A DNA stretch of 63,716 nucleotides from Acidobacteriaceae bacterium (GCA_030049955.1 JASIJX010000335.1:1-63716), one strand, 5' to 3'. Shown: positions 7,725-34,692, counted from the first letter of the stretch. Program-made: numbers and translations. Notes: a model not told the origin generated them from the letters alone.

Positions 7725-7753
7725 TTGACAAAGTGGTTTGTTTGGTGTGTACT
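7725..7753 (+). promoter_or_regulatory. Sigma70-type promoter for riboswitch 1 / enolase
   Basis: A consensus -35 TTGACA (7725-7730) is followed by a 17-base spacer and the -10-like TGTACT (7748-7753). Transcription would start about 7760, just before the fluoride aptamer. Confidence 0.65.
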
Positions 7754-7765
7754 ACAACCAATCTT

Positions 7766-7857
7766 GTGGTGACGGAGTTCACCCTTAACCGCTGTCCCTC
7801 CAGTTGCGTGGCCGGACAGATGATGACTCCTGACAGGGAATCCTGTTGCGGGGTCAT
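7766..7857 (+). promoter_or_regulatory. Fluoride riboswitch 1 (crcB motif), upstream of enolase
   Basis: Aptamer 7766-7834. GGTGA pairs with TCACC around CGGAGT; then TTAACCG; then hairpin CTGTCC / GGACAG; then ATGATGACTCCTGAC. The GGAGT segment pairs with ACTCC (P1). This matches the fluoride riboswitch family (Rfam RF01734). Output: ATGACTCC (7823-7830) can instead pair with GGGGTCAT (7850-7857) around an inner ACAGG/CCTGT stem. That hairpin competes with P1 and could act as terminator or anti-aptamer, though no T run follows. Fluoride binding stabilises P1 and should favour expression of the genes below. Confidence 0.9.
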
Positions 7858-7899
7858 GTCTGTGGCTAGATTCCCAATCACAATCGAAAGTGAGATTCC

Positions 7900-8169
7900 A
7901 TGGCAAGCGCATGGCTTCTTTCTCTTTTGTGTTTCGGGTTCGCGGCGGTTGTGGCATTGTGCGCGGCGTTAGTGTCGCGTCGTGTAACAGCCTCCATTTT
8001 TCTTCCGATTTACGCAACCTCATTGGTTCTTCTTCCGGAGGGGTCGCGACAGCACACCTATGTGCCCCGCCTCAGTCCAATTTCTTCTTCGAGTCTTTCA
8101 ACTTCAGCGGCTTTTGTAGCCGGGAAAGTGTACGTGCATGTCGGAGATTGCCAAACTCAAAGCACTTGA
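7900..8169 (+). CDS. Possible small membrane protein between riboswitch and enolase
   Basis: An 89-codon frame starting [20 protein letters not shown] has one clear hydrophobic segment (~3-27), then a polar tail. It overlaps the enolase start by 32 bases. The region from the riboswitch to enolase is unusually long (~300 bases), which makes a leader gene possible. The upstream sequence has only a weak purine run as ribosome-binding site, and I recognise no family. It may be a leader peptide, a real membrane peptide, or chance. Confidence 0.3.
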
Positions 8170-9442
8170 GATCCTCGATTCGCGCGGAAATCCCACGCTC
8201 GCTGTCACGGTAATCCTAGCCAACGGAGTTGCAGCTACCGCCAAGGTCCCGTCGGGTGCATCTACGGGAAAGCGCGAAGCTGTCGAGCTTCGTGACGGCG
8301 ACAAGTCACGTTACGGCGGCAAGGGCGTTCTTAAAGCAAAGAGCCATGTTGAAGGCGAAATCCAGAATGCGGTTCGAGGGTTCGATGCCAACGACCAGAA
8401 AGGCCTGGACCGAAGGCTTTGTGAACTGGATGGGACGCCGAACAAGGAACGCCTGGGCGCCAATGCGATTCTGGGAGTTTCGCTTAGCGCCGCACTTGCC
8501 TCGGCTAGGGATCGCGCTCTGCCGCTCTATGCGGCGTTGGTCGACGCGCCAGCCAATCTTCTGCCCACGCCGGGCCTCAATGTGCTGAATGGCGGCAAGC
8601 ACGCCGACAGCAACGTTGATTTTCAGGAGTTCATGATCTCGCCGGTGGGCGCGCCTTCATTCAGCGAAGCTCTGCGGGCAGCAGCAGAAACATTCCATTC
8701 GTTGCAGGCGGTGCTGCGGAAGCGAGGCTACAGCACGGCTGTTGGCGACGAAGGCGGATTCGCGCCGCAGTTGAGATCGAATGAGGAGCCAATTGAACTG
8801 ATTCTCGAAGCGATCCAGAAGGCAGGTTACAAGCCTGGCAAAGACATCGTCATCATGCTTGATCCCGCCGCCAGCGAGTTTTTCGACGAGGGCAACTATG
8901 TCTTTGCGAAGTCGGACAAAAGCAAGAAAACTCCCGCAGAAATGGTCGCATTGTGGAAGAGTTGGCTTCAGAAATATCCGGAGATATGGTCGATCGAAGA
9001 CGGCGTGGCCGAAGACGATAGTGACGGCTGGAAGCAGATGACCCGCGAATTGGGCAGCCGGATTCAGCTTGTCGGGGACGACAACTTTGTTACAAATCCA
9101 GTGCTATTCCGGCAAGGGATCAAAGACGGCATTGCGAATGCCATTCTCATCAAGTTGAACCAGATTGGCACGGTGACCGAAACACTTGAGTGCATAGAGA
9201 TGGCCAGGGAAAACGGATATGGCGCGGTGATCTCGCACCGATCGGGAGAGACGGACGACAGCAGCATTGCCGACCTTGCTGTTGCTGCCGGGATGGGCCA
9301 GATCAAAACCGGCTCGGTTTGCCGCGGCGAGCGCATTGCGAAGTACAATCGCCTGCTCGAAATCGAGCGCCAATTAGGATCCAAAGGGCGCTATGCAGGC
9401 GTCAGTGCTTATGAACGCCGGAAGAAGCCGGTGAAGGCATAA
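8138..9442 (+). CDS. eno: Enolase
   Basis: Phosphopyruvate hydratase: interconverts 2-phosphoglycerate and phosphoenolpyruvate in glycolysis, cytoplasmic, Mg-dependent. 434 aa, the usual length. Visible landmarks: mobile loop [34 protein letters not shown] (catalytic Glu), metal ligands in [14 protein letters not shown] and [17 protein letters not shown] (catalytic Lys), [17 protein letters not shown] and the C-terminal [16 protein letters not shown], where most enolases have a Ser/Arg in place of the Cys-Arg-Gly. Enolase is the classical fluoride target (Mg-fluoride-phosphate complex), and this copy sits below a fluoride riboswitch at the head of the island. It is probably a dedicated, fluoride-induced copy that raises enzyme level or is itself less sensitive; the housekeeping gene would be elsewhere. 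Confidence 0.96.
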
Positions 9443-9453
9443 CGAAATTGCAC

Positions 9454-9523
9454 GCGGTGTTGGAGTCCACCGGAACAGCTCACAGAGGCAAATGACTCCT
9501 CGAAGGTCAAAAACTTGGAGGAG
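9454..9523 (+). promoter_or_regulatory. Fluoride riboswitch 2 with RBS sequestration, upstream of dynamin-crcB operon
   Basis: Aptamer 9454-9502, 11 bases after the enolase stop: GGTG...CACC arm around TTGGAGT, then GGAAC, a small hairpin GCTC/GAGGC and AAATGACTCCTCG. P1 is GGAGT with ACTCC (9495-9499). The ribosome-binding site of the next gene, GGAGGAG (9517-9523), is complementary to CTCCTC in the aptamer 3' strand. Ligand binding holds ACTCC in P1 and frees the ribosome-binding site; without fluoride, CTCCTC captures it. This is a translational ON switch readable from sequence. No separate promoter is obvious, so it may be cotranscribed with enolase. Confidence 0.9.
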
Positions 9524-9525
9524 CT

Positions 9526-12589: not shown

Positions 12590-13339
12590 ATGCTGGATCC
12601 TGGCAAAGCTCTAAAAGTCTCCATCTATGTGAGTGAAGGTTCTACAAATCACGGAATCGCAACCTATTCGAGCATTTTGGATTTTCTGCTGTATCGTGGC
12701 GTCTCCGGAGCCACGGTCCTAAAGGGGATCGCCGGTTTCGGAGCCGATCACCACATGCACTCATCGAGCATTGTGGAAATCTCTGACCGGCTGCCGATCA
12801 AAATCGAGTTTGTCGAGACGCGAGAGAAGGTAAATCAACTCCTTGGAAAACTGGAGGATTTGGCTGGTACAGGAATGATCGAGATTCAGGAGACGACAAT
12901 AGCCAAACCGGCGCGCGCCTCGAAGCCCAAGGCCGTGTTGCCACCAGTTCATCTCAAGATTGAAGGGAAAGCGAAGCTGATGCGGATCTACATCGGTGAA
13001 GCAGACCGGTGGCGCGACAAGGCGCTTCACATCGCGCTGGTTGAAGCGATGCGGGCAAATGACATTGCAGGAGTGACCGTTTACCGTGGCATCCTCGGTT
13101 ATGGTGCGCACCGGCGAATACACAAGGACAAGCCGCTACACCTTTCTCACGATAGCTCAGTCATGTTATCGGTGATCGACAGCAACGAGAAGCTTCAGGC
13201 ATTTCTGCCGATTGTAGAGCAGATGGTCCAAGAGGGATTGGTGGTGCTGTCGGATGTAGATGTCATTAAGTACGCGCACCGCCCCATCGAAATGGGTATG
13301 GAGGAAGCACATTTTCCCGCTGCAGATCAAAGAGTGTGA
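12590..13339 (+). CDS. Tandem DUF190 (PII-like) protein
   Basis: 249 aa, ATG chosen because GGAGGAGG ends 2 bases upstream. Two DUF190 domains: ~6-105 (ALKVSIYVSEG ... GVSGATVLKGIAGFGADHHM ... LPIKIEFVETREKVN) and ~128-240 (LMRIYIGEADRWRDKALHIA ... GVTVYRGILGYGAHRRIH ... SSVMLSVIDSNEKLQ). A basic Pro/Ala linker joins them. DUF190 proteins adopt a PII-like fold, often occur in operons with crcB, and are thought to regulate or assist fluoride export; the mechanism is not established. Duplicate domains may mimic part of a PII trimer. Confidence 0.9.
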   Translation: MLDPGKALKVSIYVSEGSTNHGIATYSSILDFLLYRGVSGATVLKGIAGFGADHHMHSSSIVEISDRLPIKIEFVETREKVNQLLGKLEDLAGTGMIEIQETTIAKPARASKPKAVLPPVHLKIEGKAKLMRIYIGEADRWRDKALHIALVEAMRANDIAGVTVYRGILGYGAHRRIHKDKPLHLSHDSSVMLSVIDSNEKLQAFLPIVEQMVQEGLVVLSDVDVIKYAHRPIEMGMEEAHFPAADQRV

Positions 13340-24439: not shown

Positions 24440-25399
24440 CTATGCAGCGGAAGCTGAAAAAATGCTCGCGATCATCGCCGCGACAGAGATGATGAAGGCG
24501 GCTCCAAGGAATTCGCTAATGCGAAAGAGACGCAACTTCGCAAGCGAAGACTCGATCATCACCAGGACAATCGTGAACAACAGAATCTTGAACAGGATTA
24601 ATGGAATAGCAAGCAATACATGTCCGAGTTGCACTCCGCCGGCCAAGCCCCACGGTGCCAAAAGCACGTTGAGAAAGATGCAGGTGAGCACAAGGAATTT
24701 CATCTGGCCTCCCCACTTCATCAATGCTGCACCCCGCCCGGAGTATTCGAGCCCTTTCGACTCATCGATCATCGCGAGTTCGAAGTGCCCGGTTGGGTTA
24801 TCCACGGGAATTCTTCCACCCTCCGCCAAAATCAGCATCAGAAACGCGATGAGTAAAAGAATGTGAGCCGGAGAGAAGAATGCGGCAGGACTTTCCACCC
24901 ATTTCTTTTGAACGATGTACGGAATGGTGGATTGGGCCACGAACGAGACAGTGAAGAACACGATCATGAAGACCGGCTCGGCGAGGAACCCAACCATTCG
25001 CGTTCTGCTCGCCCCCATGGGACCATAAGGATTCCCTGTGTCGACCGCTGCTAATGCGGCGAAAAAACCTCCAAGCCCGAGGAAGAACCCTCCTGCGAGC
25101 ATATCGCCCATAAACGCAAAGGCGAGAGGGTAGTCCGTGAGAACGGGAATCAGGCTCGCGACGAATAGGGGAACGATAAAAACCAGATAGGGCGTTACGC
25201 GAAAGATCCATGTAGTTTCCGACGAGACAACCTCGTCTTTGTGGAAGAGCTTCCAGAGATCCCTATAAGCTTGAAAAACACTTGGTCCACGCTTGCTTTG
25301 AATGATTTCTTTAAATCGGCTGAGCACGCCGGAGTACAGAGGGGCGAAGCCGAGTACGAACAAGAGTTGAATGAGGTTGTAGAGAATCGTCCGTGCCAT
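24440..25399 (-). CDS. HyfC/HycD/NuoH-like membrane subunit
   Basis: 319 aa with eight predicted helices, family of NuoH/HycD, the subunit connecting the peripheral arm to the membrane arm. Landmarks: FAPLYSGVLSRFKEIIQSKR at the N-terminus, the cytoplasmic charged loop AEGGRIPVDNPTGHFELAMI, and the acidic segment DESKGLEYSGRGAA. The Glu/Asp-rich loops that form the quinone-side E channel in NuoH are kept. First structural gene of the operon, with GAGGGA before the ATG. It lies ~80 bases after the 43-codon leader ORF and below fluoride riboswitch 3. Confidence 0.9.
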   Translation of the reverse strand: MARTILYNLIQLLFVLGFAPLYSGVLSRFKEIIQSKRGPSVFQAYRDLWKLFHKDEVVSSETTWIFRVTPYLVFIVPLFVASLIPVLTDYPLAFAFMGDMLAGGFFLGLGGFFAALAAVDTGNPYGPMGASRTRMVGFLAEPVFMIVFFTVSFVAQSTIPYIVQKKWVESPAAFFSPAHILLLIAFLMLILAEGGRIPVDNPTGHFELAMIDESKGLEYSGRGAALMKWGGQMKFLVLTCIFLNVLLAPWGLAGGVQLGHVLLAIPLILFKILLFTIVLVMIESSLAKLRLFRISEFLGAAFIISVAAMIASIFSASAA

Positions 25400-25476: not shown

Positions 25477-25608
25477 TCAGCAGCGCCGGACGGCGACCGA
25501 AGCGGTCGCCTGGCACAACCCGGGCGCGGTCAATTGGGGAATCTGCAGGAGAGGATCTGATGCCAATTGCTGATGTTGTAAGGTGGATTTCTGCATGATC
25601 TTCTTCAC
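25477..25608 (-). CDS. 43-codon leader ORF under riboswitch 3
   Basis: GTG start with AAAGGAG 7 bases upstream; the frame starts VKKIMQKSTLQHQQ and ends SVAVRRC (43 residues). Its ribosome-binding site can be captured by ATTCCT of the aptamer, so it is the direct translational output of the switch, which supports real translation. The C-terminal codons lie over a strong hairpin (25492-25511). No family recognised. It may be a leader peptide coupling translation to transcription of the hydrogenase-related operon, or a small subunit. Confidence 0.5.
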   Translation of the reverse strand: MKKIMQKSTLQHQQLASDPLLQIPQLTAPGLCQATASVAVRRC

Positions 25609-25626
25609 GGCGCAACTCCTTTGAGG

Positions 25627-25676: not shown

Positions 25677-25834
25677 CCCGACATGTAATGCGAACATATT
25701 GAACCGTAAGGGCCTAATTGTCAAGGTGCTAATTGCGAAAGGCGTCTTGATCTCGCAGTCGCTCAAAAAGCTCACGCCCGCGAAATGCGTGGCGATTGAC
25801 ATACCGTTGCACTGCTTTTGATACTGATAAGAGG
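25677..25834. promoter_or_regulatory. Divergent promoters for riboswitches 3 and 4
   Basis: The 158-base gap between two head-to-head aptamers carries a TTGACA box on each strand. On the plus strand TTGACA (25796-25801) is 17-18 bases from TGATACT (25819-25825). On the minus strand TTGACA (25724-25719) precedes AATATGTT; the spacing there is 18-20, so the -10 is less certain. No separate gene in the gap. Confidence 0.6.
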
Positions 25835-25908
25835 CGGGTGTTGGAGTCCACTCTTATATGCCCCGGAAGCGAGGGGAAGATGACTCCTACGAAGAAGACA
25901 TGAGGAGT
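25835..25908 (+). promoter_or_regulatory. Fluoride riboswitch 4 with RBS sequestration, upstream of MutS-like pair
   Basis: Aptamer 25835-25891: GGGTG (25836-25840) with CACTC around TTGGAGT, hairpin GCCCC/GGGG, then AAGATGACTCCTACG. P1 GGAGT/ACTCC. ACTCCT (25883-25888) is also complementary to AGGAGT (25903-25908), which contains the ribosome-binding site of the first MutS-like gene. Same translational logic as riboswitch 2. The usual AAC after the first arm is not clear here (TTATATG), so this copy is slightly off consensus. Confidence 0.85.
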
Positions 25909-25913
25909 TGTCT

Positions 25914-27572
25914 GTGCCCGCAAACCCCGCCAATCACCCGAACTTCAGTTCTTCGAAAGAATTTCACCGTTGGCCCCCTACTGGACCAGACGGAGCGACT
26001 CGCGAAACCGCAGTATTCCCGAGTATTCTCTTCGACTCGGGGGATGGTGACGGGCAAGTGGAGCAGCAAGAGGCTCCAGAGTTCTTTCTCGATTTGAATC
26101 TTGACCAGATTGTCAACGCGATTACTGCCGGCCGGGACGAATACGATCTCAAGCCATTCTTTTACACTCCACTGGCTCGCGTCGAAGCCGTTCGTTATCG
26201 TCAAGAGGTCTTCCGGGATCTTTTGGAAAATGCTCACCTGCTGCAGCTTGTTCGGTTATTTGCCGAGAGCATGCAGAAGATGCGCGCTCACCGGGCGGTT
26301 TCCGAAAAGCGATACTACAAGCGTCAAAAGCAGGCTGCCTTTCTCGATGGGGTTGAGACGTATTGCAATGCGACGCGGGACCTCACAGAGGGCTTGTTCT
26401 CCTTGAGCCTCTCATCGAGAGGCTTCCAAGCGATTCGCGATTTTCTGATACGCTACTCCGGCTCAGAAGAATTCACCAACCTCAGGGATGAAACGGAACA
26501 GGTCCGAGCCGCTCTCGCGAAGGTTCGATACTCGCTCCACATTTACCAAGGACATGTTGCAGTCGATCGCGATCACAGACGAGGCGACTACAGCGAAGAA
26601 GTTCTCAAAACTTTCGAGAAATTCCGCCAAGCCGATCCCCGCAACTATCGCCTCAAGTTAACTCTGTCGAGGGAGATGACTCACATTGAAGCGCGAATCC
26701 TCGACCTGGTTGCTGCGCTGCATTCGGAAGTCTTCGCGCACCTCGACGACTACTTCGATCGCTATCGCAACTACTCTCATGAACTGATTGCCAGATTCGA
26801 TCGGGAGGTGCAGTTCTACACCGCCTACCTCGAACAGTTAGAAGAGTTGAAGAAGGCTGGGCTCCCGTTCTGCCTCCCCAGCGTCAGTATTGATTCGAAA
26901 GAAATCCAAGCGGTCGACACCTACGATCTCGCGCTTGCCATTCAGTTGAATAATGCCCGAAAAAATGTTGTCACGAACAGCTTCAACTTGGAAGAACCGG
27001 AACGCATCTTCGTTGTGTCTGGGCCAAACCAAGGCGGCAAAACCACGTTCGCCCGTACTTTCGGACAGCTCCACTATTTGGCGGCTCTTGGCTGTCCAGT
27101 ACCGGGTGCGTCGGCAAAATTGTTCCTGTTTGACAAGCTTTTCACGCATTTCGAGAGGGAGGAGGACATCAAGAATCTGCGTGGGAAGCTCGAAGATGAG
27201 CTGATCCGCATCAACGCGATCCTCGAGAAGGCGACACCAAACAGTATCCTCATTATGAACGAAAGCTTCCTGTCTACGACGATGGGCGATGCGCTCTTTC
27301 TGAACCGCGAGGTGATGAAGCGGGTAGCGGCACTAAACATACTTTGCGTCACCGTCACTTTTCTAGACGAGATGGCTTCCTTCAACGAAGCGACAGTGAG
27401 CATGGTCAGCATGGTCAATCCCACGGATCCGCAACAGCGAACATTCAAGGTCATTCGCAAACCAGCAGACGGGCTTGCCTACGCCGCTGCAATCGCCGAA
27501 AAATATCACCTGACCTATGATGCTGTGATTGCGCGGGTCGACGCGAGGCAAAGCGGGGTAACCGGATCATGA
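25914..27572 (+). CDS. MutS-related ATPase, copy A
   Basis: 552 aa from the GTG chosen here, 6 bases after GAGGAG; the in-frame TTG at 25908 touches the ribosome-binding site and is less likely. Only the core and ATPase parts of MutS are present: a long helical lever region (~85-320), then Walker A GPNQGGKT (370-377), the Q/signature region HFEREEDIKNLRGKLEDEL, and a Walker B-like LIMNESFLSTTMG. The MutS Walker B is LDE; here the acidic pair is Asn-Glu. No N-terminal mismatch-binding domain and no Smr nuclease domain. MutS-like genes are known companions of fluoride riboswitches but their job is not known. Coupled to copy B by a 4-base overlap. Confidence 0.88.
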   Translation: MPANPANHPNFSSSKEFHRWPPTGPDGATRETAVFPSILFDSGDGDGQVEQQEAPEFFLDLNLDQIVNAITAGRDEYDLKPFFYTPLARVEAVRYRQEVFRDLLENAHLLQLVRLFAESMQKMRAHRAVSEKRYYKRQKQAAFLDGVETYCNATRDLTEGLFSLSLSSRGFQAIRDFLIRYSGSEEFTNLRDETEQVRAALAKVRYSLHIYQGHVAVDRDHRRGDYSEEVLKTFEKFRQADPRNYRLKLTLSREMTHIEARILDLVAALHSEVFAHLDDYFDRYRNYSHELIARFDREVQFYTAYLEQLEELKKAGLPFCLPSVSIDSKEIQAVDTYDLALAIQLNNARKNVVTNSFNLEEPERIFVVSGPNQGGKTTFARTFGQLHYLAALGCPVPGASAKLFLFDKLFTHFEREEDIKNLRGKLEDELIRINAILEKATPNSILIMNESFLSTTMGDALFLNREVMKRVAALNILCVTVTFLDEMASFNEATVSMVSMVNPTDPQQRTFKVIRKPADGLAYAAAIAEKYHLTYDAVIARVDARQSGVTGS

Positions 27573-29116
27573 AGGTTTTCCTCATGTTTTGTGATCGCGA
27601 CTTCACTCTCGAAGAAGGCGTACCCCCCAATGCTCGGGAACTGATCCAAGATCTAGAGCTGAACACTTTATTTCGAGCGATGGCCGGAAGCGATGAGTTT
27701 CTGTTCCAAGTCGTCAGAAGCGCCGTACTCGCGAGCGTAAAAAGCCGGGAAGCGATTGTCTATCGGCAGGAGATACTTGCGGAAAGTTTGGAATTCCCAG
27801 ATATCGTGCAAGATCTCTACTCTCTCGCAGTCAATGCCATTGAACGCGAAAAGCATATCTGGGGCTGGTTCTCGCTTTCCTCCCCGGACTCCCTCTTGCA
27901 CAGATCCGTCGAGGCACTTGGATTGTTTGTTGGATCATTGGAGCGCCTCAAGAAGCTCGCTGACGAGCACAGCTCCAAATTCCGCTCCCAGGGATTCCGA
28001 CGCTTTTTTGGCATGATCGTCGAGGAGCTCAACGATATTTATCTGCAGGCGATAAAGAACCACCTAGCACTGCTGGAATTCCGCGGCGGCATATTGATGA
28101 GTGCAGATCTCGGGCCGGATCTTCGAGGGACCAGGTACGTGCTCCATAGCCTCGAGGTAAAGAAGTTGGGTTGGCTAGAGCAGCTCCACAAATGGGCGGG
28201 ACAGATCACCCGTAAGAATGACTCGGCGCTCGCATTTGACGTCGACCCCCGCGACGAGGCCGGCTTACATGCGTTGGAGGCATTGAGAACTCAGGGAATC
28301 ATCCATGTTGCGACGGCATTGTCGCAGTCGAGCGACCACATCCTGAGTTTCTTTAAGGCACTGCAGTTGGAACTGGGATTTTATGTAGGCTGTCTCAACT
28401 TGCGGGAGAAACTCGCTGCGAAACAGGAGCCTATGTGCGTTCCGACTCCACTATGCGAGGAACACGAGGTCCTTCGATGTTCGGGAATCTACGATGTGTG
28501 CCTGAGCCTGAGCACAACTGAGCGGGTGGTCGGCAACGACATTACCGGCGAGAATAAATCTCTGGTTATGATTACAGGGGCCAATCGGGGCGGCAAATCG
28601 ACATTTCTGCGCAGCGTTGGATTGGCTCAACTCATGATGCAGTGCGGCATGTTTGTATCGGCTCGGGAGTTTCACGCTAACATTTGCCACGGGGTTTTCA
28701 CGCACTTCAAGCGCGAAGAAGATGCCAGCATGAAGAGCGGCAAGCTCGATGAAGAACTCAGCAGAATGAGCGGTATTGTGGAGCAAATTGTACCTCGCTG
28801 TGTACTTCTCCTGAATGAATCGTTCGCTTCAACGAACGAGCGAGAAGGCTCAGAAATCGCTCGACAAATTGTTCTAGCTCTTCTGGACAAGAAAGTGAAG
28901 ATCTTCTATGTCACTCACATGTTCGATTTGGCGGATGGATTCTTCCGGCAACAGACGGATTCCGCACTCTTCCTCTGTGCCGAACGTCTTGAGGATGGCA
29001 CGCGTACTTTCCGCCTTCTAGAAGGGGCGCCCGAGCGGACAAGTTATGGGGAAGATCTGTTCCGGCGAATATTTGAAGCCGAATCCGAGCGCCTTCAGGT
29101 CTCGGCTCAGGATTGA
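27569..29116 (+). CDS. MutS-related ATPase, copy B
   Basis: 515 aa, ATGA overlap with copy A. Helical core (~20-330), Walker A GANRGGKS (337-344), THFKREEDASMKSGKLDEEL signature region, Walker B-like LLLNESFASTNEREG with Asn-Glu as in copy A, and a His switch THMFDLADGF. The different N-terminus and ATPase details suggest that copies A and B form a heterodimer, comparable to MutS homologue pairs with two composite ATP sites. DNA binding cannot be inferred because the mismatch-recognition domain is absent; a clamp-like or RNA/ribosome role as in MutS2 is possible. Confidence 0.88.
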   Translation: MKVFLMFCDRDFTLEEGVPPNARELIQDLELNTLFRAMAGSDEFLFQVVRSAVLASVKSREAIVYRQEILAESLEFPDIVQDLYSLAVNAIEREKHIWGWFSLSSPDSLLHRSVEALGLFVGSLERLKKLADEHSSKFRSQGFRRFFGMIVEELNDIYLQAIKNHLALLEFRGGILMSADLGPDLRGTRYVLHSLEVKKLGWLEQLHKWAGQITRKNDSALAFDVDPRDEAGLHALEALRTQGIIHVATALSQSSDHILSFFKALQLELGFYVGCLNLREKLAAKQEPMCVPTPLCEEHEVLRCSGIYDVCLSLSTTERVVGNDITGENKSLVMITGANRGGKSTFLRSVGLAQLMMQCGMFVSAREFHANICHGVFTHFKREEDASMKSGKLDEELSRMSGIVEQIVPRCVLLLNESFASTNEREGSEIARQIVLALLDKKVKIFYVTHMFDLADGFFRQQTDSALFLCAERLEDGTRTFRLLEGAPERTSYGEDLFRRIFEAESERLQVSAQD

Positions 29117-29197: not shown

Positions 29198-29294
29198 TTG
29201 GAGGCCGAGACGTGCTTACTTCTCCACATTGCCGGGTTGCCGCCCGAAACGGGCCGGATGATGACTCCTGCGATCACGCAGGGGTCTTTCTTTT
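29198..29294 (+). promoter_or_regulatory. Fluoride riboswitch 5 (degenerate) with terminator
   Basis: The 3' half is clear: hairpin GCCGCCC/GGGCCGG, then ATGATGACTCCTGCG. The 5' half is atypical: GGAG (29200-29203) and CTCC (29222-29225) are 18 bases apart instead of about 8, and the AAC is not seen. A strong terminator follows: GACTCCTGCG / CGCAGGGGTC with an ATCA loop and TTTCTTTT (29263-29294). The terminator reuses the aptamer strand ACTCC. The 3' half closely matches riboswitch 6, so the two are probably a tandem duplication; this copy may bind weakly or not at all. Confidence 0.7.
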
Positions 29295-29330: not shown

Positions 29331-29519
29331 ATGGAGCATCCAACGGAGCCAAATTTCGTTCATCGGACCAACGGCGACGGTACCTTCGATTCGATCTGTT
29401 TAAAATGCTTCATGACCGTCGCGACAGTGAAGTACCAGGTCGACCTAAAAAATGTGGAGTGTGAACATGCCTGCGATCCACAAACGGTCGCGGGATTCAG
29501 AATTGAACGTAGCAACTGA
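29331..29519 (+). CDS. Small CxxC/CxxxC acidobacterial protein (62 aa)
   Basis: 62 aa, soluble. Pattern NGDGTFDSICLKCFMTVAT, then a helix ending ECEHACDP. This matches a family of short acidobacterial proteins with a conserved 'DSICxxCxxTVAT ... H-x-CDP' core that I recall as unnamed. Cys-x-x-Cys plus His/Cys could bind zinc as a small treble-clef-like finger. The ribosome-binding site is weak. Lies directly below the terminator of riboswitch 5, so it is probably its regulated gene. Confidence 0.65.
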   Translation: MEHPTEPNFVHRTNGDGTFDSICLKCFMTVATVKYQVDLKNVECEHACDPQTVAGFRIERSN

Positions 29520-29597
29520 ACCTAAGAAACAGGCTGAGTTCCATGCCAATCACTCGAAAACCTTTGCAGTTGAATTCGCAAATATGCTACTTTCGTG

Positions 29598-29679
29598 ATG
29601 GCGAAGGAATCCGCCATTAAGCGCCACCCGAAATGGGCTGGCTGATGACTCCTGCGATGGCGCTGGGGTCTTTCTTTTT
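29598..29679 (+). promoter_or_regulatory. Fluoride riboswitch 6 with intrinsic terminator, upstream of pyrophosphatase
   Basis: Aptamer 29598-29656: GGCG AAGGAAT CCGCC, ATTAAGC, hairpin GCCACCC/GGGCTGGC, then TGATGACTCCTGCG. Overlapping terminator: GACTCC (29647-29652) with GGGGTC (29665-29670) and inner GCG/CGC, followed by TTTCTTTTT. Aptamer P1 and terminator compete for ACTCC, so fluoride should cause read-through. Transcriptional ON switch. Confidence 0.92.
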
Positions 29680-29710: not shown

Positions 29711-30244
29711 ATGGAGAATTATCTCGACCTCCCGATCGGCGACAAAGCGCCTGAGATCGTCACCGCCGTCATCGAAGTTCCCCAAGACAGTACCAATAAA
29801 TACGAGTACGACAAAGACATGAACGTCTTTGTGTTGGATCGCGTGCTGCACTCGCCAGTACACTTTCCCGGTGATTATGGCTTCATTTCGCAGACCGCCG
29901 CTCAGGATGGCGAGCCCCTTGACGTTCTGGTTCTGGGCAACACGCCGGTTTTCCCGGGCTGCGTTTACAACGCCCGACCGATTGGCCTTTTCATCATGCT
30001 CGATCAGGGAGTCTGCGACGAGAAAATTGTGGCTTATTCCACCGCCAACCCGCGATTCCGGGACGTCAACAGCTACCAGGAAGTGCAGGAGCATATCTTG
30101 CGCGAAATTGAGCATTTCTTTTCGGTCTATAAGAACCTGGAAGGGAAACAGACGAAGGTAATTGGATGGAAGGACCGCGAAGAAGCATTCGCGGTGATCC
30201 GATCGAGTCATGAACGCTTTACGCACAACCTAGTTGCGCAGTGA
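29711..30244 (+). CDS. ppa: Inorganic pyrophosphatase, class A (family I)
   Basis: Hydrolyses PPi to 2 Pi, Mg-dependent, cytoplasmic. 177 aa from the ATG after AAAGGAG; the longer frame would run through the riboswitch. Active-site residues of the family are visible: K30/E32 (NKYEYDKD), R44 (VLDRVLHSP), Tyr in FPGDYGFIS, the signature D66-G-E68-P-L-D71, and D98/D103. The middle acidic residue is Glu instead of the common Asp. Fluoride is a strong inhibitor of this enzyme class, so an inducible copy fits the island. Cotranscribed with the ATPase gene 9 bases downstream. Confidence 0.95.
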   Translation: MENYLDLPIGDKAPEIVTAVIEVPQDSTNKYEYDKDMNVFVLDRVLHSPVHFPGDYGFISQTAAQDGEPLDVLVLGNTPVFPGCVYNARPIGLFIMLDQGVCDEKIVAYSTANPRFRDVNSYQEVQEHILREIEHFFSVYKNLEGKQTKVIGWKDREEAFAVIRSSHERFTHNLVAQ

Positions 30245-31031: not shown

Positions 31032-32732
31032 TCAACCGAAGAGGAACTCGACTCTCCAGGGGGCGCAGAGGCTACGATGGCCGGCCAGCATCAACAGCAA
31101 CAGTTGCGATGCGCTTCGCTCTTCCTCGCTCGTCAAATAGCGGCGCAACGCATCGTGCCGCAATGCGTAGCGTTGTGCGTCTTCAGCGAGGCGCTCCAGG
31201 AATTCAGAATGTGCCCGCAATAGTTTTTGCGCCGGCAGACCTGCGCCTACGGCTCTTGTGGTCGCCGCCAAGTGTGGCAAGCAGCAGGACGGAAGCCGTT
31301 TCTGGGAAGATGCCGCTACTTCCTTCACCTTCGTGGCCGCCCGTTCCACGGCGGTTTTCTCAGCCTCAATCTGAACCTGGCAAACACGGCAGGTCGCGGG
31401 GCCAGACAATAGCTGGCTTACGCTCCTGGTGGGCCAATCTATATTGCTCGCAGCGTCCGCAAAGTGCCTTAAAGCGGATGCGACGCGGCCCGCCAAGGCC
31501 GGATAGGCAGTGCATACGCCATAAGGGGATGAGAGATTTTCGTACTGCCATGTGTGCAAAGAACAGAATCCGCCGCGTTCTGAATGGTTGCGCTGCGTTT
31601 CCTGGTTGATGGTCAACTCGTATTGATATTTGCTGAGAAAGTGAAAGACAGCATCCAGAACTTCGCCGCAGATTTGGCAACCGCTTCGCTTCTCGAATTC
31701 CAGATGCAATCGAGGTCCTTCCCGCCGGCGAGGACGCGCCGAGACGGCGCCACGGTCCGCCGCACTGCCAGCATGTACCCCTTCAACCCGTTCGAGGAGG
31801 GCTTCATATGCAGGCTCACTTTCATTCCCAACCATCAGAGCACGTCGCTGCTCAAGGAAATCCCCAATGCGCCGGCGCATCATCTGGATGAACGCTTCCA
31901 CGCGTTCCTCGGTCAGAAACCGGAATAACTCAGCTTCAAACAGTTCAATGCCGGAGTTTGTCGCGAGAGCATCATTCTGTTTCAACCTTCCTTCCAGCGC
32001 TTGTCGAGCCGAAACAGAGAACACCTTCGGTGCCTGTAGAAACGCAAATTCTTTAAGCTTGTTCTGCACGTAGTCGAGCACCTGCGAGCGTTCCGCTTCG
32101 CCAATGGTGTCCTGTTTGTTCACAATGATAAAGAGCGGCTTGCTCGCCTCTCGAATCCGCCTCAAGGCACGAATCTCTTCTTCGGAAAGAGGGCTTTCAT
32201 AGCTGGTAATCAACACGAACGCATCGGCTTCGGGAAAGAACCGTTCCGTTGTTTGCGTATTTTCGGCGATCGCAGAGCCCAGGCCTGGGCTATCGACAAA
32301 GAACAGGCCTCGACGCAAAATATCTACCGGAAGCTCGATCTCTGCATATGCAACGTTTTTCACGTTGCCTGGATTTGCCTGCTGCGTCACGTATTCCGGT
32401 AACTGGGAAAGCGGAATGTCCTGCCGCAAACGCGACCCGGAAAAATTTAGCACGACACGATTTCGGCTACCGTACCGCACGGTCGTGATGACTGAGGTCA
32501 ACGGAAGAATACCGGTGGGAAGATATGCGCCACCCAGCAATGCATTCACCAGCGTCGATTTCCCGCGGTTGAACCTGCCGACAAGCATCAGATTGAAACG
32601 ATCGTCTGCAAGGCGCCCCTGGAGGTCACGCACGACTGATTGCACGTCGGTGTCCTTCGTACCCACCGCCTGAGCGGCACGAAGGATTTCTGCCATGGCG
32701 AACTTCGCTTGTTCGTATTCCTTCAGATCCAT
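31032..32732 (-). CDS. Dynamin-like GTPase fused to Cys/His module (third dynamin)
   Basis: 566 aa. GTPase domain: P-loop GRFNRGKS (52-59), G2 Thr in LPLTSVITT, G3 DSPG (147-150), G4 NKQD (205-208). After ~320 the usual long stalk is replaced by an Arg-rich linker and a Cys/His domain: C352xxC355, C390xxH393xW395, C448xxC451, C484xxH487. This order is the same as in the 188-aa protein beside crcB. The C-terminal ~70 residues are helical with a Leu-rich end. The fusion suggests that the free module also acts with a dynamin-like GTPase. Last gene of the operon below riboswitch 7, 48 bases after the HEAT-repeat gene. Confidence 0.88.
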   Translation of the reverse strand: MDLKEYEQAKFAMAEILRAAQAVGTKDTDVQSVVRDLQGRLADDRFNLMLVGRFNRGKSTLVNALLGGAYLPTGILPLTSVITTVRYGSRNRVVLNFSGSRLRQDIPLSQLPEYVTQQANPGNVKNVAYAEIELPVDILRRGLFFVDSPGLGSAIAENTQTTERFFPEADAFVLITSYESPLSEEEIRALRRIREASKPLFIIVNKQDTIGEAERSQVLDYVQNKLKEFAFLQAPKVFSVSARQALEGRLKQNDALATNSGIELFEAELFRFLTEERVEAFIQMMRRRIGDFLEQRRALMVGNESEPAYEALLERVEGVHAGSAADRGAVSARPRRREGPRLHLEFEKRSGCQICGEVLDAVFHFLSKYQYELTINQETQRNHSERGGFCSLHTWQYENLSSPYGVCTAYPALAGRVASALRHFADAASNIDWPTRSVSQLLSGPATCRVCQVQIEAEKTAVERAATKVKEVAASSQKRLPSCCLPHLAATTRAVGAGLPAQKLLRAHSEFLERLAEDAQRYALRHDALRRYLTSEEERSASQLLLLMLAGHRSLCAPWRVEFLFG

Positions 32733-32780: not shown

Positions 32781-33719
32781 TCAAGCCTCAAGCCTGTTGC
32801 CGAGAAGATGGTGCAAAACGCGCCAGAAGGGCGAAAGCCAGTTCGGGTTTTCGCCAAGTCGCTGTCGATGCGCGGCAACTCTCGCCGCAACCGATTGCGC
32901 GATCATCGCGTGCTCGTCCAGCAACTCGATCGTCTCCATTTCCTGCGCTCCATTCATACTTTTGGCGCCTTCAATCAAAGCCGACACAATCTCTTCCTTG
33001 TTTGCTTCGGAACCGATTCCAAAACCGATTCGAGCGGTTGCAATCACGCAATCTGCATCTTCGTGCCACAGGTAGCCACGCAGTTCCGGCCATTCGCTTA
33101 CGCCAGCTCCCCACTCGGCCAATAGCTGGAGCGTCGAACGCAGGCGACGTAATGCGGCAGATCCGCAGATTGAAACTTCCGATAATCCTCTAAGGAGCAA
33201 CACTGCGAACGGCCGGGCAGCTTCGGGCATCTTCCTCAAGGCTGCTTTTGCGTCTTCACGGCATAGATCATCTTCAAGCAGTTCAAACAGGATCGGAACA
33301 GCCTCAGGAGGGCGAAACTCGCCGACGGCTTCCACTAGGCCACCGGTTGCGCGGTCCCGAAGCGCTCTCAACAGTGTTGGAAGCACCTCGTCAGAATGGC
33401 AATGCAGAAGTTCTTGTGCCGCCGCGCTGCGCACAGCGTCCTCCGCAAGCAGCACAGCGGCATCTGCAGGCTTCGAGTATTCGTGAAAATAAGTAAGCAA
33501 CGATGAGCACGCGCCCAGTTCGCCCAATACTCTAACGGCGCGGCAGCGTGGCATCGCAAGCGATCGCGGCAGTGATCTCAACAGAAACTGCGCTACGTCG
33601 GGAACTACTCGCGGCCCCTGAGCAATCAGTTCTTCCGTCGCGCGATCCCCGTCGACAACTGAATCCAGCAATCTAATCAGCCGTTCAATTCGTTCATATT
33701 CTTCGGGTAAATTTCCCAT
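32781..33719 (-). CDS. HEAT-repeat protein
   Basis: 312 aa, almost entirely helical. Repeated HEAT-like units are visible (PRCRAVRVLGELGACSSL, AEDAVRSAAAQELLHCHSDE, VLPTLLRALRDRATGGLVEA, AVPILFELLEDDLCREDAKA). Such solenoids act as protein-binding scaffolds. No catalytic motif or signal peptide. Lies between the metallophosphoesterase and the third dynamin-like GTPase, so a scaffold for one of these is a fair guess. Confidence 0.8.
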   Translation of the reverse strand: MGNLPEEYERIERLIRLLDSVVDGDRATEELIAQGPRVVPDVAQFLLRSLPRSLAMPRCRAVRVLGELGACSSLLTYFHEYSKPADAAVLLAEDAVRSAAAQELLHCHSDEVLPTLLRALRDRATGGLVEAVGEFRPPEAVPILFELLEDDLCREDAKAALRKMPEAARPFAVLLLRGLSEVSICGSAALRRLRSTLQLLAEWGAGVSEWPELRGYLWHEDADCVIATARIGFGIGSEANKEEIVSALIEGAKSMNGAQEMETIELLDEHAMIAQSVAARVAAHRQRLGENPNWLSPFWRVLHHLLGNRLEA

Positions 33720-33772
33720 CTTCGATGTTCCCTGTGAACTCTGCGCGCTTTTATGTCAATGCTCAATTCAAT

Positions 33773-34471
33773 TCACTTCGGCAAGTTGCCGGTCTGCAAT
33801 ACGGAAATAAGGGCATCCTGATCTGGCGTAGTAATCGGCATTTCACGAATCCCCCGAATCGTTTCTTCGACCGGGTACTCATATTCTTTGCGGAGGATCC
33901 GTCCGTTCTGCCAAACTGCGTAGCAGGCCATCGGTCGCCCTGTCTTCGGCTGTCCGAGACTGCCTGGATTAAGAATCGCGGTGCGGCCTTCCATCCGCAA
34001 AAACGGTGTATGCGTGTGGCCAACGATCAGCACGTCGGCATCGATGGCCCTCACATGGTCCCGCCACGCCGCTGAATCTTCCGGGCAGTAGCCAAACAAC
34101 GGATCGACTGGAGTTGCATGGACGAGATAAAACCTCGCTGAGCCGGTGCAAATTTCCCGGTAGAGAGGCAAATTGCGAAGATAATCCAGATCATCCCCGG
34201 AACAGACCTGCTGTGTATACCGGAGTGTTTCCGCCGCCAGCCGCTTATATGGAGGCGAACAGCGGGGATCGGCTGAGAATCCGGCCGCATTGTCGTGGTT
34301 CCCGCGTACGCATGCGGATGCATTGTGCTTTATCCACTGCACAACTTCGTGCGGATGAGGCCCGTAATCGACGAGGTCTCCGATACACCAGAGCGCGTCA
34401 TAGTCTCGCTCTGGTAGCGCGTCCAGTGCAGCAATATTCCCGTGAATATCAGACACCACGACGATCTTCAC
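33773..34471 (-). CDS. Metallophosphoesterase (YfcE/MJ0936-like)
   Basis: 232 aa, calcineurin-like fold with a complete set of metal motifs: SDIHGN (Asp8/His10), GDLVDYGP, RGNHDN, LVHATP and VGHTHTPF; then NPGSLGQP as in small YfcE-type phosphodiesterases. Substrate unknown; relatives hydrolyse phosphodiesters or nucleotides using two divalent metals. First gene below riboswitch 7. A fluoride-induced metallophosphatase could replace fluoride-inhibited phosphatases, which is inference only. Confidence 0.88.
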   Translation of the reverse strand: MKIVVVSDIHGNIAALDALPERDYDALWCIGDLVDYGPHPHEVVQWIKHNASACVRGNHDNAAGFSADPRCSPPYKRLAAETLRYTQQVCSGDDLDYLRNLPLYREICTGSARFYLVHATPVDPLFGYCPEDSAAWRDHVRAIDADVLIVGHTHTPFLRMEGRTAILNPGSLGQPKTGRPMACYAVWQNGRILRKEYEYPVEETIRGIREMPITTPDQDALISVLQTGNLPK

Positions 34472-34565
34472 AGTACCCTCGTTCCTGGTCGCGAGAGCAC
34501 TCGGCTCCGCAACCGCTCAAATGCGAAGATGAATTTCGGGGAGCCAGCCAGGAGGGCAGGAGAAT

Positions 34566-34656
34566 CCCCGACGACATCTCGTCAGGGGTCATCATCTGCC
34601 CACCCAAATGTGGCATATAAGGATGGAACAGCAGTTAAGGCGAACCCCTTCGCCTG
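34566..34656 (-). promoter_or_regulatory. Fluoride riboswitch 7 (minus strand) with GC hairpin
   Basis: On the minus strand: GGCGA AGGGGT TCGCC, TTAAC, hairpin closed by CTG/CAG bases, then GCAGATGATGACCCCTGAC. P1 is GGGGT/ACCCC where copies 1, 2 and 4 have GGAGT/ACTCC, a clean compensatory change. The overlapping hairpin pairs CCCC and GACGA with TCGTC and GGGG around GATG (34566-34588); no T run follows, so the platform may be a transcriptional block or Rho-linked. It sits ~95 bases before the metallophosphoesterase start. Confidence 0.9.
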
Positions 34657-34686
34657 CGACCTCCGTATTTGCGAAGGTTCACCACG

Positions 34687-34692
34687 AGTATA
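34687..34692 (-). promoter_or_regulatory. Probable -10 box for riboswitch 7
   Basis: TATACT on the minus strand, about 31 bases before the aptamer. A -35 match is weak, so only the -10 is called. Confidence 0.4.

What the first reader, a model, noticed from the sequence alone, without database searches (positions are those of the whole stretch)
7725..34692. A 27-kb island whose transcription units all lie under fluoride riboswitches
Seven aptamer-like sites (one degenerate) precede every transcription unit between 7.7 and 34.7 kb. The genes include CrcB, the two classical fluoride targets (enolase, pyrophosphatase), DUF190 proteins, three dynamin-like GTPases, two MutS-like ATPases, a seven-gene hydrogenase-like complex, a metallophosphoesterase, a HEAT protein and an AAA ATPase. 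Several of these families are known riboswitch companions one at a time. A single contiguous locus with this whole set looks like an integrated fluoride response: export, enzyme replacement, membrane remodelling and ion pumping.
Basis: partly seen in the sequence, partly recalled or inferred. Interest (0 to 1): 0.97.

Follow-up and report, generated by a model that had tools for sequence, protein, structure and literature searches.

The report
Fluoride riboswitch island with hydrogenase-derived pump
In this stretch of bacterial DNA six neighbouring gene groups each follow an RNA element of the fluoride-riboswitch type, parts of the same gene set recur beside such elements in other phyla, and its "hydrogenase-like" complex lacks the metal-binding residues of real hydrogenases, so it likely moves ions to help the cell survive fluoride rather than making hydrogen.

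Summary
Seven sites of fluoride-riboswitch type lie between 7.7 and 34.7 kb, none elsewhere in the window. They head all six transcription units; the seventh is a 5'-truncated copy. Three pass the Rfam cut-off, two score below it, two are seen only by a model built here. Downstream DNA can pair with each aptamer's 3' strand, as in ON-switches.

It recurs. Of 78 loci with a relative of one island GTPase, 67 carry such elements and 34 carry three or more, in several phyla. One Paraburkholderia genome has 34 in 126 kb.

New here: riboswitch-linked "formate hydrogenlyase" complexes lack the four Ni-Fe ligands, with no formate dehydrogenase or maturation genes nearby. In two surveys (62 large-subunit loci) 25 of 25 from two Cys-less clades have a riboswitch within 8 kb; 0 of 37 others do, three genuine Ni-Fe subunits included. 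A 2024 review reads this gene as fermentative formate oxidation; these data contradict that for the taxa tested.

The third dynamin-like GTPase carries a (CxxC-CxxH)x2 tail (66 of 66 sequences), related to a stand-alone protein beside crcB.

Ion pumping, membrane repair and enzyme rescue are inferred; nothing was tested with fluoride.

The parts
7759..7839 (+). Fluoride riboswitch aptamer heading the enolase unit
   Evidence: RF01734 35.2 bits (gathering 34); R1 60.3 bits (in its training set); 8-bp possible competing helix
8138..9442 (+). Enolase
   Evidence: NCBIfam TIGR01060 609.8 bits (cut-off 300)
9447..9508 (+). Degenerate fluoride aptamer whose 3' strand can pair with the Shine-Dalgarno GGAGGAG just before the dyn1 ATG
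   Evidence: R1 28.6 bits E 1.2e-6; not seen by RF01734; SD helix
9526..11616 (+). dyn1, dynamin-like GTPase
   Evidence: PF00350 82.6 bits
11638..12015 (+). CrcB (Fluc fluoride channel family)
   Evidence: PF02537 90.8 bits
12012..12578 (+). cys: small protein with (CxxC..CxxH)x2, related to the tail of dyn3 (GTG start read from the sequence)
   Evidence: motif and hhalign prob 96.5, P 7e-10; weak DUF6062 18.5 bits (cut-off 27)
12590..13339 (+). DUF190 protein (two DUF190 stretches)
   Evidence: PF02641 194.7 bits
13353..13721 (+). DUF190 protein
   Evidence: PF02641 106.2 bits
13721..15487 (+). dyn2, dynamin-like GTPase
   Evidence: PF00350 94.6 bits
15509..17653 (-). hyfB1-like antiporter-type membrane subunit
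   Evidence: PF00361 177.8 bits; FHL subunit 3 and Mbh/Mrp relatives
17758..19899 (-). hyfB2-like antiporter-type membrane subunit, 57% identical to hyfB1
   Evidence: PF00361 140 bits
19903..20658 (-). hyfI-like small subunit fused to a ferredoxin-like stretch; PGC replaced by PGN
   Evidence: PF01058 74.1 bits; alignment
20671..22296 (-). hyfG-like large subunit lacking all four Ni-Fe ligand cysteines
   Evidence: PF00346/PF00329; alignments
22298..23743 (-). hyfF-like antiporter-type subunit
   Evidence: PF00361 172.4 bits
23734..24426 (-). hyfE-like subunit
   Evidence: PF00420 21 bits (below cut-off 26.1); position in operon
24440..25399 (-). hyfD-like (NuoH family) subunit
   Evidence: PF00146 102.5 bits
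25621..25683 (-). Fluoride riboswitch aptamer heading the hyf operon; 3' strand can pair with a Shine-Dalgarno AGGAG before a GTG (helix no stronger than in shuffles)
   Evidence: RF01734 53.9 bits; helix score 13.5
25828..25896 (+). Fluoride aptamer heading mutS1-mutS2; 11-bp helix covers the Shine-Dalgarno of mutS1
   Evidence: RF01734 21.3 bits (below gathering); R1 30.1 bits
25914..27572 (+). mutS1: MutS-like ATPase, domain V only (GTG start inferred from the SD)
   Evidence: PF00488 59.3 bits; PDB relatives align at the ATPase end
27569..29116 (+). mutS2: second MutS-like ATPase
   Evidence: PF00488 70.9 bits
29215..29277 (+). 5'-truncated duplicate of the pyrophosphatase riboswitch, terminator retained
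   Evidence: R1 26.1 bits; alignment; terminator
29591..29661 (+). Fluoride riboswitch aptamer with overlapping intrinsic terminator, heading ppa-aaa
   Evidence: RF01734 44.5 bits; terminator
29711..30244 (+). Inorganic pyrophosphatase (PF00719 type)
   Evidence: PF00719 182.7 bits
30254..31009 (+). AAA-type ATPase
   Evidence: AAA/ATPase_2/NB-ARC hits, all below cut-off; found next to ppa in many loci
31032..32732 (-). dyn3: BDLP-type dynamin GTPase with C-terminal (CxxC..CxxH)x2 module
   Evidence: PF00350 87.6 bits; PDB 2j68 E 3.6e-34 over 24-339; model pLDDT 87.5; motif in 66 of 66 sequences
32781..33719 (-). HEAT-repeat protein
   Evidence: PF13646 29.9 bits (cut-off 27.7)
33773..34471 (-). 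Metallophosphoesterase
   Evidence: PF12850 77.9 bits
34576..34663 (-). Fluoride aptamer heading mpe-heat-dyn3
   Evidence: RF01734 31.3 bits, E 4e-5 (gathering 34); 9-bp possible competing helix

Best explanation
This is a fluoride-riboswitch island in which six units, each headed by an aptamer of the fluoride-riboswitch type followed by DNA that could form a competing hairpin, would be switched on together by fluoride, and whose hydrogenase-like complex lacks the Ni-Fe ligands and so likely works as a complex-I-type ion pump rather than as a formate hydrogenlyase. Shown by sequence: the sites, the possible competing hairpins (terminator or Shine-Dalgarno in five of seven), the gene set, its recurrence with riboswitches across phyla, and the missing ligands. 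Inferred: in acid surroundings HF enters and splits into H+ and F-; the aptamers bind F- and free the terminator strand or the Shine-Dalgarno; CrcB lets F- out along the membrane potential; spare enolase and pyrophosphatase replace inhibited enzyme; the Cys-less Hyf/Ehr-like complex would pump out the protons that HF-in/F--out cycling carries in, keeping up the potential on which CrcB depends; the BDLP-type dynamins would maintain the membrane; and the two MutS-like ATPases, in which no mismatch-binding domain was found, might act on protein-metal targets rather than on DNA mismatches. What drives the pump is unresolved: the small subunit keeps a ferredoxin-like cluster motif, but in the window it has lost one of the four proximal-cluster cysteines.
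For: Sites. Possible helix between the aptamer 3' strand and downstream DNA in 203 sites (7 window + 196 in loci): mean score 19.9 against 13.5-13.9 in ten shuffles; terminators 44 of 203 against 0-5, SD+start 48 of 203 against 8-18, no helix 10 of 203 against 81-87 in three shuffles. Recurrence: 67 of 78 dyn3-relative loci have at least one site at E<=0.05, 55 two or more, 34 three or more; 65 of 78 if only matches of 30 bits or confirmed by RF01734 count. 118 of 196 sites in loci have an island-family reading frame directly downstream, against a mean of 22 (max 41) in 200 random placements. Acidicapsa dinghuensis keeps nearly the same block order. Background: most genomes have one site; >=5 in 9 of 150 in the family of Acidicapsa and 13 of 144 in the genus of Paraburkholderia DHOC27. 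Ni-Fe ligands absent. Survey not selected by riboswitch: 11 of 11 + 14 of 14 signature-clade loci have a site within 8 kb, 0 of 20 + 0 of 17 others (Fisher 1.2e-8 for the first set). No fdhF, hypA-C, hycH or hycI relative in the 78 loci, the window or the four large islands, nor in the 25 riboswitch-linked survey loci. Antiporter subunits align over most of their membrane part to FHL, Mbh and Mrp pumps.
Against: No ligand binding, transcript or growth data. Four of seven window sites are below the Rfam cut-off. The helices at 25621 (13.5) and 29591 (14.5) are about as strong as shuffles give on average, though the latter has a U-run. 101 of 203 sites have a helix that my rules called neither terminator nor SD, a share no higher than in shuffles (99-109). 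The first-ligand column is Cys in 2 of 15 close relatives of the large subunit (P0091, P0104; whether they are riboswitch-linked was not checked), though the other three ligands are missing. No driver of the pump is identified. 78 of 196 sites in loci have no recognised island gene directly downstream. The 78 loci were chosen by a dyn3 relative, so 67 of 78 is not a random sample. One of the 25 survey positives (L127) rests on a 25.9-bit match.
Confidence: 0.6

Rival explanations
1. The complex is a genuine formate hydrogenlyase or hydrogenase and the island shifts the cell to anaerobic fermentation under fluoride, as a recent review assumes for riboswitch-linked formate hydrogen lyase.
For: Subunits are homologous to FHL (FHL subunit 5, E 2e-66) and are often named so; the review states it (PMC11139923, section read).
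Against: Ni-Fe ligands missing in every riboswitch-linked large subunit read; a real FHL on a Pantoea plasmid and three real Ni-Fe loci in the survey keep them, and three of these four have fdhF and hycI relatives nearby; the three survey loci have no site, and the Pantoea locus only a 21.6-bit antisense match that I take for chance.
Confidence: 0.04
2. A loose accretion of fluoride-resistance cassettes, each with its own portable riboswitch, with no integrated physiology; the dynamins, MutS-like ATPases and Ehr complex are passengers.
For: Block order varies between loci, riboswitches are re-used and duplicated (29215 is a decayed copy), islands are sporadic within a family and a genus, and what read as integrase and transposase remnants flank the window's island.
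Against: The same families recur together across phyla directly behind riboswitches; Acidicapsa keeps nearly the window's block order; only particular Ehr clades are recruited (25 of 25 against 0 of 37).
Confidence: 0.25
3. The Cys-less complex is a redox-independent Mrp-like cation/proton antiporter rather than a redox-driven pump.
For: Proximal cluster ligand replaced in window and L065 (N) and L072 (E), all four ligands lost in L069; antiporter subunits doubled in the window; Na+/H+ exchanger under a riboswitch in L078.
Against: A ferredoxin-like C..CxxCxxC stretch remains in all seven HyfI sequences that reach it, and four of eight keep the PGC cysteine; an Mrp exchanger normally imports H+ (recalled).
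Confidence: 0.35
4. An anti-phage or membrane-defence island (dynamin pair, AAA, MutS-like) rather than a fluoride response.
For: Weak PADLOC hits of dyn1-3 to LeoA/LeoBC (best 58.8 bits), and weaker ones of the AAA protein and the metallophosphoesterase (17.7 and 22.1 bits); mobile remnants nearby.
Against: No PADLOC hit for the MutS-like, DUF190, cys or HEAT proteins; presence of CrcB, enolase and pyrophosphatase and a fluoride-type aptamer before each unit.
Confidence: 0.03

Closest known systems
Fluoride riboswitch (crcB motif, RF01734) regulon
   Same: Aptamers, overlapping terminators; crcB, enolase, pyrophosphatase, mutS and 'formate hydrogen lyase' are known companions (PMC2864571 passages; PMC11139923 section)
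   Different: In the two groups sampled here most genomes have one site; here every unit of a 27-kb locus has one, and one relative has 34; the 'formate hydrogen lyase' lacks Ni-Fe ligands; no paper in the library holds both 'fluoride riboswitch' and 'dynamin'
[quoted passage not shown]
   Same: Island with crcB, enolase and pyrophosphatase under a fluoride riboswitch; strong induction by fluoride and loss of resistance on deletion (abstract and Results part 1 read)
   Different: The fluoride-induced fragment is 4.5 kb with six genes; Mn-dependent pyrophosphatase, uspA, gpmA; its gene table shows no dynamin, MutS-like or Ehr-like gene
Ehr (energy-converting hydrogenase-related) complexes
   Same: Group 4 hydrogenase-like subunits without the Ni-Fe ligands, with Mrp-like subunits (definition: PMC6349859 passages)
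   Different: In the two surveys the riboswitch-linked ones form two clades (FGLS/T..C[DA]R C-terminus) and 34 other Cys-less complexes have no riboswitch within 8 kb; the actinomycete L069 is riboswitch-linked but falls outside both clades on a long branch
Bacterial dynamin-like proteins (BDLP, IniA, Campylobacter pair)
   Same: GTPase and neck by sequence (residues 24-339) and Foldseek (BDLP E 2e-15, TM 0.39, so only part superposes)
   Different: C-terminal part carries a (CxxC..CxxH)x2 module, also found as a separate gene beside crcB

Membership tests
Fluoride riboswitch RF01734 | Score at or above the curated gathering score | tested here: inconclusive
   Met by 3 of 7 sites; 2 below, 2 not found by RF01734
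Fluoride riboswitch RF01734 | Expression platform that competes with the aptamer | tested here: met
   All 7 window sites have a possible competing helix: two terminators, two classed SD plus start, one more that covers the mutS1 SD, two others; 25621 and 29591 are no stronger than shuffles by helix score alone. Set-wide excess over shuffles
Fluoride riboswitch RF01734 | Fluoride binding and switching | not testable with these tools
   none
Formate hydrogenlyase / group 4 [NiFe] hydrogenase | Two CxxC motifs binding Ni-Fe in the large subunit | tested here: not met
   RFAATSAFAH and FGLSATECDR against RVCGICGFTH and DPCYSCTDR of the control
Formate hydrogenlyase / group 4 [NiFe] hydrogenase | Formate dehydrogenase FdhF and Hyp/HycI maturation genes nearby | tested here: not met
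   No relative of six control proteins at E<=1e-3 in window, 78 loci and 4 islands
Ehr complex | Complex I/hydrogenase-like subunits plus antiporter-like subunits, no Ni-Fe ligands | tested here: met
   definition from PMC6349859
Ehr complex | Charge translocation coupled to a redox reaction | not testable with these tools
   none; one proximal-cluster cysteine lost in the window
Respiratory complex I | Quinone-ligating His38 and Tyr87 of the 49-kDa subunit (T. thermophilus numbering, roles recalled) | tested here: not met
   Aligned to positions 197 and 247, Ile and Ala in the window
DNA mismatch repair MutS | Mismatch-binding domain I beside ATPase domain V | tested here: not met
   Only PF00488 found in both proteins at E<=1e-3
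KamC reactivase (NF052383) | Score at or above the curated cut-off of 300 | tested here: not met
   52.1 and 68.7 bits
Bacterial dynamin-like proteins | Dynamin_N GTPase with BDLP-type fold | tested here: met
   PF00350 above cut-off for all three; BDLP first in Foldseek for dyn3, GTPase/neck part only; dyn1 and dyn2 not modelled
Bacterial dynamin-like proteins | Membrane binding and remodelling | not testable with these tools
   none
Fluoride-resistance genomic island (GI3 type) | crcB, enolase and pyrophosphatase under fluoride riboswitch control | tested here: met
   (crcB behind the degenerate 9447 site)
Fluoride-resistance genomic island (GI3 type) | Loss of resistance on deletion | not testable with these tools
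   none

The most novel reading that the evidence does not exclude
Bacteria in fluoride-rich, acid habitats share a mobile, many-riboswitch fluoride survival machine built around a hydrogenase-derived ion pump that works without H2, NADH or quinone, zinc-motif dynamins that seal the membrane, and MutS-like ATPases that rescue fluoride-poisoned metalloenzymes; the 'formate hydrogenlyase' of the fluoride field is this pump.
Probability: 0.35. Interest if true: 0.88.

Novelty: new variant of a known kind. Interest (0 to 1): 0.77.

Why it matters
Riboswitch-linked 'formate hydrogen lyase' is cited as part of a fluoride-driven shift to fermentation (PMC11139923). If the riboswitch-linked complexes are Cys-less Ehr-type pumps, that reading fails and a plain test appears: does this complex keep pH and membrane potential up while HF leaks in? 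The islands also give a short list of unexplained but recurring fluoride genes (CxxC/CxxH dynamin, MutS-like pair, DUF190, (CxxC-CxxH)x2 protein), and a named strain in the genome collection, Acidicapsa dinghuensis 4GSKX, in which to study them. The same review names fluoride toxicity as an obstacle to microbial PFAS degradation.

Tried and rejected
Own-genome search: no genome is held for the window. Defence-island idea: weak LeoA-type hits only. KamC membership of the MutS-like pair: far below cut-off. Literature on KamC-type reactivases: nothing useful. First structure model of dyn3 with 13 close relatives was poor (pLDDT 63) and was not searched; the 40-sequence model was used. A 62-aa ORF behind the truncated riboswitch (29331-29519) has no relative in the loci held at that time. 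Strict terminator test by folding: 57 of 203 against 9-32 in five shuffles; replaced by the helix test, which also sees SD sequestration. GC content did not delimit the island on its left. Plasmid search for the large subunit gave 228 records, all under 60% identity; three were opened: one real FHL, two Cys-less, none with a credible riboswitch. I considered SAM synthetase in Acidicapsa as riboswitch-led and dropped it: no fluoride site lies upstream on its strand, and a SAM riboswitch lies just before it. Absence from print rests on searches of an open-licence library; except for 85 (no paper) and 18 (six papers) only the top rows of longer lists were shown. Baker 2012 (PMC4140402) is not held and was not read.

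Full report
WHAT IS THERE. The finding names seven fluoride-riboswitch-like sites in 7,725-34,692. RF01734 at its gathering score gives three (25683-25621 minus, 29591-29661 plus, 7759-7839 plus); a permissive scan of 7.0-36.0 kb adds 34663-34576 minus (31.3 bits) and 25828-25896 plus (21.3 bits), and otherwise two unrelated weak matches. I aligned 17 sites from the window and six related loci, built a covariance model (R1) and scanned the whole window with filters off: the same five plus 9447-9508 and 29215-29277, then a gap to E 0.45. Three of the window's sites were in the training set. R1 is not free of false positives: in a control locus it scored 21.6 bits antisense inside a gene. The 9447 site has lost core positions; the 29215 site lacks its 5' half and matches the 29591 element along aptamer and terminator.

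THE SITES LOOK LIKE ON-SWITCHES. In the window, the 3' strand of the aptamer can pair with downstream DNA in all seven cases: terminators at 29591 and 29215; a Shine-Dalgarno before a GTG at 25621, before the dyn1 ATG at 9447, and an 11-bp helix over the mutS1 Shine-Dalgarno at 25828; helices of 8 and 9 bp at 7759 and 34576. Judged by helix score alone, 25621 (13.5) and 29591 (14.5) are no better than shuffles. Over 203 sites (window 7, loci 196) the mean helix score is 19.9 against 13.5-13.9 in ten shuffles; 10 sites have no helix against 81-87 in three shuffles; terminators number 44 against 0-5 and SD-plus-start 48 against 8-18; the remaining 101 'other' helices are as common as in shuffles (99-109). 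Ligand binding frees the terminator strand or the Shine-Dalgarno in such designs, so fluoride would turn the genes on. That step is inferred.

EVERY UNIT HAS ONE. The six units are eno; dyn1-crcB-cys-DUF190-DUF190-dyn2; the seven-gene hyf-like operon on the minus strand; mutS1-mutS2; ppa-aaa; mpe-heat-dyn3 on the minus strand. R1 finds no further site in the 63.7 kb. Those dyn3 relatives that carry a source's organism name among the 120 listed are Acidobacteriota; the window's own organism is not told.

IT RECURS. A scan of genome contigs with a dyn3 alignment gave 78 loci. R1 finds sites at E<=0.05 in 67 of 78; 55 have two or more, 34 three or more, 20 four or more. Of the 203 matches in that scan 21 score under 30 bits; counting only matches of 30 bits or more, or confirmed by RF01734, leaves 65 of 78. 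The 11 without a match include six contigs shorter than 7 kb. Gene maps show subsets of enolase, crcB, DUF190, dynamins, the mutS1-mutS2 pair, hyf genes, pyrophosphatase and the AAA ATPase, in changing order, in Acidobacteriota, alpha-, beta- and gammaproteobacteria, Negativicutes, Sporomusaceae, Syntrophobacteraceae, Streptosporangiaceae and Niastella. Of the 196 sites in loci, 118 have an island-family reading frame directly downstream; 200 random placements give 22 on average and 41 at most; 78 sites have none. Acidicapsa dinghuensis has site-eno, site-dyn1-crcB-cys-DUF190-DUF190-dyn2, mutS1-mutS2 with a site, site-ppa-aaa and dyn3-heat-cyclopropane synthase-mpe with a site, and a hyf operon whose own site lies 23 kb before that of eno. 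The densest case is Paraburkholderia sp. DHOC27: 34 sites between 51,350 and 177,321 of one contig (34 again with R1 on that stretch; 33 with stricter filters). Other genes directly behind sites there, in Acidicapsa or in other loci are CLC-type anion transporters (L093, L030, L082), a Na+/H+ exchanger (L078), an outer-membrane efflux protein (L090), an SMC ATPase (L092), an EAL/GGDEF protein (L079) and a histidine-phosphatase-superfamily protein (L083).

BACKGROUND. In 150 genomes of the family of Acidicapsa, 126 have a site and most have just one; 9 have five or more. In 144 genomes of the genus of DHOC27, 113 have a site and 13 have five or more. The many-site islands are therefore sporadic, which fits horizontal spread. 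In the window, what read as remnants of a P4-type integrase (minus strand, about 35.25-35.8 kb) and an IS110-like transposase fragment (about 7.36-7.56 kb) lie just outside the island (family names from my reading of the translation, not from a search).

THE HYDROGENASE-LIKE COMPLEX IS NOT A HYDROGENASE. The large subunit aligns best to FHL subunit 5, but where a real enzyme has RVCGICGFTH it has RFAATSAFAH, and at the C-terminus FGLSATECDR stands for DPCYSCTDR (control from a Pantoea alfalfae plasmid with fdhF and hyp genes). In 15 close relatives the second ligand column is Ser in all; the first is Cys in two (P0091, P0104), otherwise A, T, V or S; the C-terminal ligands are missing in all 15. 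Ten distinct subunits from riboswitch-bearing loci (Acidobacteriota, alpha-, beta- and gammaproteobacteria, an actinomycete) all lack the N-terminal pair, and nine of nine with a C-terminus lack the C-terminal pair; in nine of the ten a site heads the hyf genes, while for L065 the upstream end is not in the locus and the sites seen head other genes. No fdhF, hypA-C, hycH or hycI relative lies in the window, the 78 loci or the four large islands. The residues that ligate quinone in complex I (His38, Tyr87 of T. thermophilus Nqo4; roles recalled) align to positions 197 and 247, Ile and Ala in the window. The small subunit has a ferredoxin-like stretch, but the fourth proximal-cluster cysteine is Asn in the window and L065 and Glu in L072, and all four are lost in the actinomycete L069; it is kept in four of eight. 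The antiporter-like subunits align over most of their membrane part to FHL subunit 3, Mbh and Mrp.

A SURVEY NOT SELECTED BY RIBOSWITCH. I took the best large-subunit loci of the 150 and 144 genomes above, returned by similarity to the subunit (30 + 30, plus two added by hand), and classed them by motif. For the first set the motifs were read before the riboswitch scan; the second set was scanned and classed in the same turn by the same signature. Acidobacteriaceae: 11 of 11 in the two clades ending FGLS/T...CDR have a site within 8 kb (one, L127, only at 25.9 bits), 0 of 20 others (Fisher 1.2e-8, or 2.5e-7 if L127 is not counted). Paraburkholderia: 14 of 14 in clade II (FGLT...CAR), 0 of 17 others. 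The others comprise 3 genuine Ni-Fe subunits, two of them beside fdhF and hycI relatives, and 34 Cys-less Ehr-like ones. One of these, L218 of G195, has sites about 11 kb away on the same contig, outside the 8 kb. Without the two hand-added loci the totals are 24 of 24 and 0 of 36. So in these groups the riboswitch-linked complexes are particular Cys-less clades; the actinomycete L069, from another source, is riboswitch-linked but falls outside both on a long branch. This contradicts, for these groups, the statement that riboswitch-associated formate hydrogen lyase oxidises formic acid during fermentation (PMC11139923, 'Metabolic acclimation' section, read); the link itself was reported in 2010 (PMC2864571, passages). 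By the definition in PMC6349859 (passages) they are Ehr complexes.

THE DYNAMINS AND THE CxxC/CxxH MODULE. dyn3 matches BDLP (2j68) over residues 24-339, E 3.6e-34; its model (pLDDT 87.5, pTM 0.79, 40 sequences) has BDLP, IniA and mitofusin on top in Foldseek (E 2e-15 for BDLP, but TM 0.39, so only part superposes). The rest carries CxxC...CxxH...CxxC...CxxH, present in 66 of 66 dyn3-type sequences, window included, and in 0 of 11 dyn1 and 0 of 13 dyn2. The protein encoded right after crcB in the window has the same motif order; of 12 such sequences 10 are complete, L014 is cut by the end of its locus and L001 lacks the first CxxC. It is related to the dyn3 tail (hhalign 96.5%, P 7e-10). Metal binding is inferred.

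THE MutS-LIKE PAIR. In both only MutS domain V is found by Pfam. Walker A is read in 27 of 28 mutS1 and 26 of 26 mutS2 sequences; an NES in place of the usual Walker B DE (recalled) is read in 25 of 26 mutS2 and, by a narrow pattern, in 11 of 28 mutS1. Both occur in 24 of the 30 loci (window included) that have either. A role outside mismatch repair is likely; enzyme rescue is my guess, prompted by a sub-cut-off likeness to the KamC reactivase.

HOW IT WOULD WORK. HF enters and dissociates, and Fluc channels release F- along the membrane potential (PMC11139923, section read), so each HF-in/F--out cycle brings in one H+. A pump that restores the potential would then matter as much as the channel, and the Cys-less complex is the best candidate in the island. 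Enolase and pyrophosphatase would replace inhibited enzyme, as proposed for E. cloacae GI3 (PMC5533749, abstract and Results part 1). Dynamins and, in relatives, cyclopropane synthase would act on the membrane. Apart from the cited points and the gene content this paragraph is inference.

LIMITS. No experiment; source genome not held; the literature library lacks most subscription papers; the 78 loci were selected by dyn3; R1 E-values are rough; family and motif names marked recalled come from no call.

Noticed in passing
window 35250-35800, minus strand: Degraded frames that read like a tyrosine-recombinase (P4-type, DUF4102-like) integrase with stops and frameshifts just outside the island's right end; a DUF190 fragment lies in the plus-strand ORF 34893-35525.
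   Followed up: partly
window 7360-7560, plus strand: Fragment that reads like an IS110-type transposase just left of the first riboswitch, followed by a hairpin at 7604-7661 (weakly matched to a microRNA family, taken for chance).
   Followed up: partly
window 25477-25608, minus strand: A 43-codon ORF with GTG start and Shine-Dalgarno sits between the aptamer and hyfD; the possible riboswitch helix covers its Shine-Dalgarno, so it may be a translated leader.
   Followed up: no
window 29331-29519, plus strand: 62-aa ORF with a CxxC motif behind the truncated riboswitch; no relative in the loci fetched.
   Followed up: partly
G002:C3:51350-177321 (L079-L085): Paraburkholderia sp. DHOC27 holds 34 fluoride riboswitches in 126 kb, leading a CLC gene, mutS pairs, a Hyf-like operon, an EAL/GGDEF protein and many unknown genes; most of its units were not annotated.
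   Followed up: partly
L092:14840-18544 minus: An SMC ATPase directly behind a fluoride riboswitch in Acidicapsa dinghuensis; the reason is unclear.
   Followed up: no
L090:17429-18781 and on into L091: An outer-membrane efflux protein follows a fluoride riboswitch in Acidicapsa, and the next two ORFs have the lengths of the other parts of an RND-type pump (not searched).
   Followed up: no
L069:5747-6637: In a Streptosporangiaceae relative the small subunit of the Cys-less complex has lost all proximal-cluster cysteines but keeps the ferredoxin-like stretch.
   Followed up: no
window 1-59: 3' part of a tRNA at the window's left edge (RF00005, 30.3 bits).
   Followed up: no
L127:11060-11151 minus and 11292-11367 plus: A weak divergent riboswitch pair (25.9 and 22.8 bits) beside a hyf-like operon, the same arrangement as the window's 25621/25828 pair.
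   Followed up: no
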